IMG/VR virus record: IMGVR_UViG_3300022690_001935
Location: 1 to 22,985 of that record
Length of the DNA stretch: 22,985 nucleotides
From: a virus
Direction: 5' to 3' (one strand)
Shown here: in pieces, positions 9,367-10,470 of the stretch
Numbering within the stretch: the stretch's first letter is position 1
Layout: every line of letters starts with the position of its first letter
Notes under the pieces: generated by a model
Told to the model about the DNA's origin: nothing
The model's database searches: none
The model's input: only the letters and a program-made list of their open reading frames with translations
Made by a program: the position numbers and the translations under genes

Positions 9367-10101
9367 ATGCCGAAATTAAATCAAGTCATAGCTATCGAGA
9401 AAGGAGTAAAAAGTCGGGCTTATGCCGAGTTAACTGAGACCTTTAAGGTCATTCAGAAGCCCGATCTTTTTCAGGGGTTTGCCAAAACTTATAGGCCCAA
9501 GGATGAAGCAGGAGAAACCTATCCGCCCGAGCACAAAAAGGTTCAATTTAACGTTGAGACTCTCCTCAAGAAAATCGCAGGGGGAATTGGGGAGGCTATG
9601 GATGTTACGGTGCAGAAGGATTCAGCGAATACAAATGCGTATGCGGATGTTGTTATAGAGGATGCCGACCTTACGCTCTCCGCGCTCCCGGTGACTTTCT
9701 TGTTGTCTCTGGAAAAGCAGTTTACGGACCTAAGAACCTTTATCGTCAAACTGCCTGTACTGGATGAAATAGAAGACTGGTCTATAGATCAAAACACTGA
9801 TCTTTATAAAACAAATGCCATCTCTACTCACCGCACCAAAAAGACACAGACTCCCATTGTTCTTTATAATGCTACCAAGGAACACCCCGCTCAGACTCAG
9901 ATCATCACAGAGGACGTTCTCGTGGGATACTGGGAGACCATTAAACACAGCGGTGCGATGCCTGCTCCAAGGAAAGAGATTATCTTGGGCCGCATGGATG
10001 CTTTCATCAAGGCAGTGAAGTTTGCAAGAGAGAAGGCAAACGAAGGGGATGCACCTAAGAAGTATGTTGGGGACCAAGTCTTCAATTATCTGTTTGCTTA
10101 A
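9367..10101 (+). CDS. Conserved phage protein of unknown function, 244 aa
   Basis: AGGAGG at 9356-9361 gives an ideal start. I recognise the overall pattern (KLNQVIAIEKGVKSR near the N-terminus; ALPVTFLLSLEKQFTDLR; THRTKK; HPAQTQIITEDVLVGYW; a C-terminal KAVKFAREKANE) as a widespread phage protein family without a known activity, which I believe is annotated only as a DUF. It has no membrane segment or nuclease motif I can name. It is the only protein in its transcription unit and sits 30 bases upstream of two tRNA-mimic RNAs, ahead of a terminator. A role in binding, processing or using those RNAs is an inference from this layout only. Confidence 0.75.
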   Translation: MPKLNQVIAIEKGVKSRAYAELTETFKVIQKPDLFQGFAKTYRPKDEAGETYPPEHKKVQFNVETLLKKIAGGIGEAMDVTVQKDSANTNAYADVVIEDADLTLSALPVTFLLSLEKQFTDLRTFIVKLPVLDEIEDWSIDQNTDLYKTNAISTHRTKKTQTPIVLYNATKEHPAQTQIITEDVLVGYWETIKHSGAMPAPRKEIILGRMDAFIKAVKFAREKANEGDAPKKYVGDQVFNYLFA

Positions 10102-10131
10102 TAGCTTGGGGATGTTGAATCTCATGAGTAA

Positions 10132-10248
10132 GCTGAATCAACGGACGTGTAGGTTCGAATCCTACCTCGGGCTTAAATATGCCCGAGTGGCGGAATTGGC
10201 AGACGCTTTAAGTCCGGTCAAATTTAGATTATTCCCAAGAGACTCAGC
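10132..10248 (+). ncRNA. tRNA-like RNA 1 in permuted order (YrlA-type Y RNA candidate)
   Basis: Order along the RNA: 5' stem strand GCTGAATC (10132-10139); CGGAC (10142-10146); a perfect T-arm GTAGG-TTCGAAT-CCTAC (10149-10165); acceptor strand CTCGGGC (10166-10172); loop TTAAATAT; acceptor strand GCCCGAG (10181-10187, 7/7 pairs); Leu-type D-arm with stem GCG/CGC (10190-10206) and the loop GG; GTCCG (10212-10216, pairs with CGGAC); 3' strand GACTCAGC (10241-10248, 7 of 8 pairs). The 3' half of a tRNA thus precedes the 5' half, the acceptor stem is closed by a loop, and the anticodon arm is replaced by the terminal stem. YrlA bacterial Y RNAs, partners of the ring protein Ro60/Rsr, have this permuted tRNA-like fold. 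No Ro60 gene is visible here and I do not see an unmistakable Ro-binding motif. Confidence 0.7.
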
Positions 10249-10272
10249 ATTGTTGTGGTTGTCGGATCGAAT

Positions 10273-10378
10273 TCCGCTGACAAAGCTTGCGGTAGGCGTG
10301 GGTTCGAATCCCACACGGGCCTCTATATGGCCTGGTAGCTTAGAGGTAGAGCGACTGCAATTAGATTTACGCAGCGGA
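10273..10378 (+). ncRNA. tRNA-like RNA 2 in permuted order (YrlA-type Y RNA candidate)
   Basis: Same plan as its neighbour: outer strand TCCGCTG (10273-10279); TTGCGGT (10287-10293); AGGC; T-arm GTGGG-TTCGAAT-CCCAC (10298-10314); acceptor ACGGGCC (10315-10321); loop TCTATAT; acceptor GGCCTGG (10329-10335; 6 of 7 pairs with one wobble); TA; D-arm GCTT-AGAGGTA-GAGC (10338-10352); ACTGCAA (10354-10360), pairing with TTGCGGT over 7 bp; outer strand CAGCGGA (10372-10378), pairing with TCCGCTG over 7 bp. The D-arm is of the class-I tRNA type, unlike RNA 1. No U33 or anticodon loop can be made from the flanks, so it cannot decode even if the ends were joined; a mimic is more likely than a split tRNA. 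A possible lower helix pairs GTCGGAT (10261-10267, one bulged G) with ATCGAC (10388-10393). Confidence 0.7.
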
Positions 10379-10436
10379 TTAAATGTCATCGACGACTTAA
10401 ATCGCAACAGTACCGTGGAAGACGGTACACCTTGTG
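10379..10436 (+). other. Hairpins between the tRNA-like RNAs and the terminator
   Basis: GTACCGT (10410-10416) and ACGGTAC (10422-10428) form a perfect 7-bp hairpin with loop GGAAG. Upstream, GATT...GTC (10377-10387) can pair with GAC...AATC (10394-10403) with one mismatch and a bulge. These may be a third structured part of the same transcript or processing signals. No open frame of note is present. Confidence 0.5.
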
Positions 10437-10470
10437 GGTAGGGGGGACGGATATTCCCCCCTACCTTTTT
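10437..10470 (+). terminator. Strong intrinsic terminator
   Basis: GGTAGGGGGG (10437-10446) pairs perfectly with CCCCCCTACC (10456-10465) across a 9-base loop, followed directly by TTTTT (10466-10470). It ends the unit that begins at the promoter at 9299. Confidence 0.9.

What the first reader, a model, noticed from the sequence alone, without database searches (positions are those of the whole stretch)
10132..10378. Two tandem tRNA mimics in permuted order, best explained as phage-encoded YrlA-type Y RNAs
Seen: in both units a perfect T-arm (TTCGAAT loop) comes before a D-arm, the two acceptor strands are joined by a short AT-rich loop (TTAAATAT, TCTATAT), and the strands flanking the module pair with each other. 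Unit 1 has CGGAC/GTCCG plus GCTGAATC/GACTCAGC; unit 2 has TTGCGGT/ACTGCAA plus TCCGCTG/CAGCGGA. The outer helices differ in sequence but both pair. Known: YrlA Y RNAs fold as tRNA mimics with the anticodon arm replaced by the Ro60-binding stem, and some phages carry them. Inference: these are such RNAs, present as a pair of different tRNA types. Standard tRNA finders would miss or misplace them.
Basis: partly seen in the sequence, partly recalled or inferred. Interest (0 to 1): 0.92.

Follow-up and report, generated by a model that had tools for sequence, protein, structure and literature searches.

The report
Two-headed tRNA-mimic RNA with DUF7873 partner
The two back-to-front tRNA look-alikes are real, but they are not Y RNAs: they are the two heads of one ~370-base RNA that sits directly behind an unstudied gene (DUF7873) in hundreds of phages and bacteria, a conserved protein-RNA pair that appears never to have been described.

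Summary
Both units are permuted tRNA-like modules (T-arm, acceptor, short loop, acceptor, D-arm) that ARAGORN misses. A relative (L002) keeps both with compensatory base changes. The YrlA Y RNA reading holds only for shape. Rfam scores unit 2 at 32.9 bits (cut-off 69) and unit 1 not at all, and neither contig has a Ro60/TROVE match.

The two units belong to one RNA that starts just after a DUF7873 gene (9367-10101) and ends at a terminator near 10470. Of 90 phage-derived DUF7873 loci, 85 carry a permuted module within 900 nt downstream (upstream 7, shuffled 0.8). Of 80 bacterial loci (Streptomyces, Myxococcota, Planctomycetota, Acidobacteria and others), 76 do (upstream 1). Among 101 Streptomycetaceae genomes the RNA occurs in 61, all DUF7873-positive, one copy each, and in none of the 37 without DUF7873.

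The RNA has a leader of up to four 6-nt repeats, a Leu-like head (usually A73), and a second head (usually U73) on an arm that covaries strongly. It is in no Rfam family, and DUF7873 is named in no paper of the library searched.

Best guess at function: a stand-alone RNP that uses two tRNA mimics to bind tRNA-recognising enzymes, as YrlA does with one. The chemistry is untested.

The parts
9367..10101 (+). DUF7873 (PF25283) gene, 244 aa, presumed protein partner of the RNA
   Evidence: Pfam E 8.9e-93; 73 INPHARED phage records; 345 IMG/VR stretches; at least 535 bacterial stretches; model pLDDT 93 without a confident known fold
10114..10137 (+). leader of four 6-nt repeats GTTGAA-TCTCAT-GAGTAA-GCTGAA (three fit NYTNAN)
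   Evidence: 59 of 140 relatives have exactly four tandem [CT]TNA hexamers, none has five; dinucleotide shuffles none with four
10142..10216 (+). tRNA-like domain 1 (Leu-like): inner stem CGGAC/GTCCG, T-arm 10149-10165, acceptor 10166-10172/10181-10187, D-arm 10190-10206
   Evidence: nearest tRNAs are all Leu; R1 match 38.1 bits at 10118-10241
10173..10180 (+). acceptor-closing loop of unit 1 (TTAAATAT), no CCA
   Evidence: relatives usually have A73-C74 here, CCA in 24 of 49
10220..10249 (+). central conserved stretch AAATTTAGATTATTCCCAAGAGACTCAGCA, related to consensus RRYTYARRYTMT-YGCTC-YARRYTYAGCA
   Evidence: anchored alignment of 37 relatives
10250..10264 (+). 5' strands of two basal helices of unit 2 (TTGTTGTG, GTTGTCG); 3' strands at 10403-10410 and 10390-10396
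   Evidence: pairing kept in L002, with G-U to G-C and A-U changes; folded together
10265..10385 (+). tRNA-like domain 2 on its arm, from GATCGA to TTAAATG
   Evidence: R1 92.6 bits, E 8.4e-21 (the window is one of the 25 sequences in the model); covariation in 21 of 23 pairs
10273..10279 (+). outer helix of unit 2, 5' strand (pairs with 10372-10378, just before TTAAATG)
   Evidence: in relatives 53% have at least 7 bp here against 11% with mismatched partners
10298..10352 (+). T-arm 10298-10314, acceptor 10315-10321/10329-10335, loop TCTATAT 10322-10328, D-arm 10338-10352 of unit 2
10438..10469 (+). terminator hairpin GTAGGGGGGA...TTCCCCCCTAC followed by T run; proposed end of the RNA
   Evidence: sequence and fold

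Best explanation
Shown by computation: the two modules are the two tRNA-like heads of a single ~370-nt RNA encoded directly downstream of DUF7873. DUF7873 and this RNA form a conserved, stand-alone two-gene cassette of bacteria and their phages. Inferred: the cassette makes an RNP. DUF7873 binds the RNA, probably at the tandem 6-nt repeats of the leader and at similar repeats in the centre. The RNA then displays two tRNA elbows, a Leu-like one and a U73 one, whose anticodon side is fused to the scaffold. These heads act as tRNA mimics that dock or occupy tRNA-recognising enzymes (elbow or acceptor binders such as maturation, modification or decay enzymes, or tRNA-attacking nucleases), much as the single tRNA-like domain of YrlA docks PNPase for Ro60. 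Phages would carry it to manage or shield tRNA function in the infected cell; several sit inside phage tRNA arrays.
For: Linkage: permuted modules downstream of DUF7873 in 85/90 phage-derived and 76/80 bacterial loci, against 7/90 and 1/80 upstream and about 1% in shuffles. Co-occurrence: in 101 Streptomycetaceae genomes the RNA (model R1, E up to 1e-10) is in 61, all among the 64 with DUF7873, one copy each, about 150-280 nt downstream on the same strand; 0 of 37 without DUF7873. In 7 of 7 diverse genomes the best R1 match lies at the DUF7873 locus. Structure: 21 of 23 pairs of the unit 2 domain have compensatory changes, covariation score 0.91 against 0.24 shuffled and at most 0.18 slid; the outer helix passes a mismatched-partner control. 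Repeats: exactly four hexamers in 59/140 leaders, none in shuffles. No neighbouring gene is conserved across groups, so the cassette stands alone. tRNA mimicry: T-loop GTTC and D-loop GG are invariant in the aligned set. The YrlA precedent (TLD modified by DusA and TruB, binding PNPase) is reviewed in PMC8394870; PMC7790460 suggests a YrlA TLD may inhibit an anticodon nuclease.
Against: No transcript, binding or genetic data. DUF7873 gives no confident structural match, so RNA binding is inferred from linkage only. The scanner and the A3 set selected for acceptor pairing, and A3 also for an outer helix of at least 7 bp, so those pair counts are inflated; the mismatched-partner control covers the outer and inner helices only. 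Conserved N73 and C74 in relatives suggest matured ends rather than uncut loops, which fits the processed rival better.
Confidence: 0.5

Rival explanations
1. Processed, charged version: as in two-piece (permuted) tmRNA, RNase P and tRNase Z cut the acceptor loops, giving a multi-piece RNA with two real CCA ends. Head 1 is leucylated (LeuRS reads A73 and the tRNA body rather than the anticodon, from my own knowledge) and head 2 is possibly charged too. The RNP then delivers or senses aminoacyl groups.
For: N73 is A in 39/49 unit 1 and T in 69/92 unit 2; C74 in 39/49 and 81/92; full CCA in 24/49 and 24/92; pair 1-72 is G-C in 85/92 unit 2. Unit 1 is closest to tRNA-Leu. The two-piece tmRNA precedent is described in PMC3985003.
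Against: Many loops are 4-9 nt without CCA. The window itself has TTAAATAT and TCTATAT, with T73 and no CCA in unit 1. U73 acceptors (Cys, Gly) normally also need the anticodon (own knowledge).
Confidence: 0.27
2. One reading: YrlA-type Y RNAs that bind a Ro60 protein of the phage or host.
For: YrlA match of 32.9 bits for unit 2, 31-38 bits for relatives; same permuted core.
Against: All far below the gathering score of 69; no TROVE or DUF2828 on the window or the 65-kb relative; RNA found beside DUF7873 in about 95% of loci examined from the protein side; one single RNA with two heads.
Confidence: 0.06
3. Circularly permuted tRNA genes that are spliced into ordinary translational tRNAs.
For: Permuted order, CCA encoded in part of the relatives.
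Against: Inner stems run into longer helices and internal loops, so no 7-nt anticodon loop with U33 could be read across the halves in those checked by eye; head type is fixed (Leu-like, then U73), unlike a tRNA set.
Confidence: 0.04
4. Decoy against tRNA-attacking defence or toxin nucleases: the RNA soaks up an anticodon or elbow nuclease, and DUF7873 stabilises it.
For: Phage copies in Mimi, Phendrix, NiceHouse and RHph_TM30 lie inside tRNA arrays; a competitive-inhibitor role was proposed for YrlA (PMC7790460).
Against: No anticodon loop to attract anticodon nucleases; chromosomal copies are common in bacteria.
Confidence: 0.1

Closest known systems
YrlA Y RNA (RF02553) with Ro60/Rsr (TROVE)
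   Same: Permuted tRNA-like core with D- and T-arms and a closed acceptor end; anticodon arm replaced by a protein-binding stem; ncRNA encoded next to its protein
   Different: Two heads on one RNA, no Ro60, DUF7873 partner, hexamer leader, AUCGA/UUAAACG internal loop, conserved N73; Rfam score under half the cut-off
Two-piece permuted tmRNA (RF04321, RF01849-RF01851)
   Same: 3' tRNA half encoded before 5' half, intervening segment between acceptor strands, tRNA-like domain fused to a larger RNA
   Different: No match of the window to these models at E up to 1; two tRNA-like domains; Leu-like rather than Ala; tag frame not searched for systematically
Circularly permuted tRNA genes (Cyanidioschyzon, some archaea)
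   Same: Gene order 3' half then 5' half
   Different: No anticodon could be reconstructed in those inspected; hosts are bacteria and phages; paired with a dedicated protein gene
Phage Ro60/Y RNA loci (mycobacteriophages; Listeria phage CKA15, PMC12282133)
   Same: Phage-borne RNP candidates with Y RNA-like RNAs
   Different: Different protein families and flanking motifs

Membership tests
YrlA (RF02553) | Scores above the Rfam gathering threshold (69 bits) | tested here: not met
   32.9 bits for unit 2, no match for unit 1; relatives 31-38
YrlA (RF02553) | Tied to a Ro60/Rsr (TROVE) gene | tested here: not met
   No TROVE match in the window contig or the 65-kb relative; both are fragments, so a gene elsewhere in the genome or host is not excluded
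YrlA (RF02553) | Permuted tRNA-like domain with closed acceptor end on a basal stem | tested here: met
YrlA (RF02553) | Binds Ro60 and PNPase | not testable with these tools
   needs biochemistry
Permuted tmRNA (RF04321) | Matches the covariance model | tested here: not met
   window scan at E up to 1 lists YrlA only; the model does score a permuted tmRNA in RcXuper at 108 bits
Permuted tmRNA (RF04321) | Tag reading frame in the coding piece | not tested
   no systematic search for a tag frame was made
Circularly permuted tRNA gene | Halves join to a tRNA with a usable anticodon loop | tested here: inconclusive
   inner stems continue into outer helices; a few members inspected by eye, not all
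DUF7873-linked two-headed RNA (this work) | Model R1 match downstream of DUF7873 | tested here: met
   92.6 bits at 10265-10385, 164 nt after the DUF7873 stop; the window is one of 25 sequences in the model

The most novel reading that the evidence does not exclude
A new kind of bacterial and phage ribonucleoprotein: one RNA with two permuted, end-matured and aminoacylatable tRNA heads (leucine and a U73 amino acid) held on a DUF7873 oligomer through 6-nt repeats, using charged tRNA mimics for a task outside ordinary translation.
Probability: 0.2. Interest if true: 0.95.

Novelty: categorically new. Interest (0 to 1): 0.85.

Why it matters
A structured RNA present in hundreds of phage and bacterial genomes, including about 60% of the Streptomycetaceae sampled, with its own protein, seems to have gone unnoticed because tRNA finders skip permuted order and the protein is a DUF. 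It gives a directly testable system for why cells build RNAs that imitate tRNA. With the Ro60, DUF2828 and phrog_33734 loci seen alongside, it suggests that the permuted tRNA module is a general effector that has been joined to several unrelated proteins. Its building block, the permuted tRNA-like domain, is known; the two-headed RNA with DUF7873 is not in Rfam 15 or in the paper library searched. bioRxiv and most subscription papers were not searchable.

Tried and rejected
Ordinary tandem tRNAs: rejected, because the acceptor strands on either side of the short loop pair with each other and covary, and ARAGORN calls none. Ro60 partner: searched in the window and relative, none. DUF2828 partner: none. 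Crossing pair CTTGGGGA 10105-10112 / TTCCCAAG 10232-10239: kept in L002 but without variation, left open. Fold of DUF7873: Foldseek found nothing at E up to 0.001 in PDB or BFVD; the best second-look match was 3kdq, Z 9.7 at 8.2 A rmsd, a protein of unknown function, so no inference was drawn. NCBIfam and PADLOC: nothing useful, no defence annotation. Genome neighbourhood: only Streptomyces-internal synteny. Unit 2 amino-acid identity from nearest tRNAs: mixed, unresolved. First genome-contig scan with the window protein alone found nothing; the alignment A2 worked. One whole-RNA alignment was too gappy for a full consensus fold, so the unit 2 domain was modelled alone. Literature: no paper for DUF7873, none found describing this RNA.

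Full report
OBSERVATION. Two modules each run T-arm, acceptor 3' strand, short AT-rich loop, acceptor 5' strand, D-arm. ARAGORN reports no tRNA in the window. The units fold better than shuffles (z -3.5, -2.7; the whole stretch -6.3). The only close relative found with the upstream gene as query (L002, in a 65-kb contig, 82% identical protein) keeps both modules. It carries two compensatory changes in acceptor 1, one in the outer helix of unit 2, and single-sided G-U to G-C or A-U changes elsewhere.

NOT A YrlA MEMBER. Rfam gives YrlA 32.9 bits for unit 2 (cut-off 69) and nothing for unit 1. The window contig and the relative's contig have no TROVE match and no DUF2828 match. Both are fragments, so absence from the whole genome is not proven.

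DETOUR THAT BECAME A CONTROL. A pattern scan of IMG/VR found about twenty other phage contigs with permuted modules. They fall into groups by flanking motif and by partner gene. Modules with TTACTTC are on contigs with Ro60 (TROVE); the related loci of Gordonia phage GMA2 and Microbacterium phage SM23 also have one. Modules with ACAGCAA are on contigs with DUF2828 in four of four cases. Modules with CATCCTTCT or TGCTTATTTCT lie next to a protein of family phrog_33734. So the permuted tRNA module is joined to several different proteins. The window belongs to none of these groups.

THE REAL PARTNER. Directly upstream of the window's units is a DUF7873 gene (9367-10101; Pfam E 8.9e-93). In every DUF7873 phage record first opened there was an unannotated gap downstream. 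In Arthrobacter phage Mimi, Gordonia phage Phendrix and Pseudanabaena phage Pam2 the gap holds the same two permuted modules (for Pam2 the scanner finds only the first, the second was read by eye, and R1 scores it at 55 bits). IMG/VR holds 345 stretches encoding relatives. Of 90 phage-derived loci with enough downstream sequence, 85 have at least one module within 900 nt downstream and 47 have two; upstream 7, shuffled 0.8. In GTDB genomes at least 535 stretches encode DUF7873; of the 80 fetched, 76 have a module and 56 have two, against 1 upstream and 0.6 shuffled. Of the four missed, two (L332, L275) are recovered by the covariance model, L275 on the other strand.

CO-OCCURRENCE. Model R1, built from 25 unit 2 domains, was used on 101 Streptomycetaceae genomes. 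The RNA was found in 61 and DUF7873 in 64 (one a fragment). All 61 are DUF7873-positive, with one RNA each, about 150-280 nt downstream on the same strand. None of the 37 genomes without DUF7873 has it. The genomes are related, so this is not 61 independent events. In seven genomes spread over several phyla the best match lies at the DUF7873 locus in all seven.

ANATOMY. From 5' to 3': a leader with hexamer repeats of the type NYTNAN (exactly four in 59 of 140 loci, never five; none with four in shuffles); head 1, closest to tRNA-Leu (33 of 49 classified); a central conserved stretch with similar repeats; head 2 on an arm with basal helices, an AUCGA/UUAAACG internal loop, an outer helix and an inner stem; then a terminator. 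For the head 2 domain 21 of 23 pairs show compensatory change, covariation score 0.91 against 0.24 shuffled. That set was selected for acceptor pairing and for an outer helix of at least 7 bp, so the unselected control matters: across 92 unit 2 sequences 53% have at least 7 bp in the outer helix against 11% with partners exchanged between loci, and inner stems of at least 6 bp occur in 59% against 13%. The position after the acceptor (N73) is A in 39/49 head 1 and T in 69/92 head 2, followed by C in 80-88%, with CCA in 24/49 and 24/92. The window is untypical here: its loops are TTAAATAT and TCTATAT.

PROTEIN. DUF7873 is predicted with high confidence (pLDDT 93) but has no confident structural relative and no PADLOC or NCBIfam name. 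It has no conserved neighbours across groups, so the protein and RNA look like a complete cassette.

INTERPRETATION. Shown: a conserved protein-RNA gene pair with two permuted tRNA-like domains. Inferred: DUF7873 binds the RNA, probably through the repeats; the heads act as tRNA mimics. YrlA offers the precedent: its tRNA-like domain is modified by DusA and TruB and binds PNPase (PMC8394870), and it has been suggested to inhibit an anticodon nuclease (PMC7790460). The conserved N73-C74 leaves open that acceptor ends are cut and even charged, as in two-piece tmRNA (PMC3985003). The window scan lists no permuted tmRNA match.

NOVELTY. The module is known from YrlA and two-piece tmRNA. The two-headed RNA with DUF7873 is in no Rfam 15 family, and DUF7873 appears in no paper of the searched library. 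Preprints and most subscription journals could not be searched, so an unseen description remains possible.

Noticed in passing
L033, L017, L079/L151, L120/L152, L140 (Gordonia phage GMA2), L141 (Microbacterium phage SM23): Permuted tRNA modules, in the IMG/VR contigs with a TTACTTC flanking motif, on records that also carry a Ro60 TROVE gene; in SM23 the TROVE gene starts about 0.2 kb after the unit. Best Rfam YrlA score 43 bits, below cut-off.
   Followed up: partly
L055 2300-3100 (-), L111 2090-3300, L081, L118: Arrays of elements with an outer stem and an ACAGCAA motif, some with permuted tRNA modules and intact anticodon hairpins (Arg UCU, Met-like); all four contigs carry DUF2828, and the L055 array lies directly upstream of it.
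   Followed up: partly
L032 8100-9060, L139 2440-3060 (Rhodobacter phage RcXuper), L074, L016: Permuted modules with CATCCTTCT or TGCTTATTTCT motifs next to a 570-750 aa phrog_33734 protein (TerD-like part in L032); a possible third Ro60-like partner family.
   Followed up: partly
L016 1788, L074 4112, L055 3023: In these units the anticodon hairpin (Lys UUU, Arg UCU) lies in the 3' half, and the halves would meet between positions 28 and 29 of the anticodon stem.
   Followed up: no
L275 2657-2929 (-): DUF7873 RNA on the strand opposite to the protein gene, upstream of it: the only such arrangement noticed.
   Followed up: no
L170 6770-6870 (Microcoleus phage My-WqHQDG), L171 and L178 (Rhizobium phages): Divergent DUF7873 loci: L170 has a normal-order tRNA-like sequence downstream, the Rhizobium phages one permuted module with G-CCA and AAACTCA repeats.
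   Followed up: no
L140 2780-2836; L033 8971-9618: Pistol ribozyme match in Gordonia phage GMA2 near its Y RNA-like unit, and a ROOL RNA between the tRNA genes of L033.
   Followed up: no
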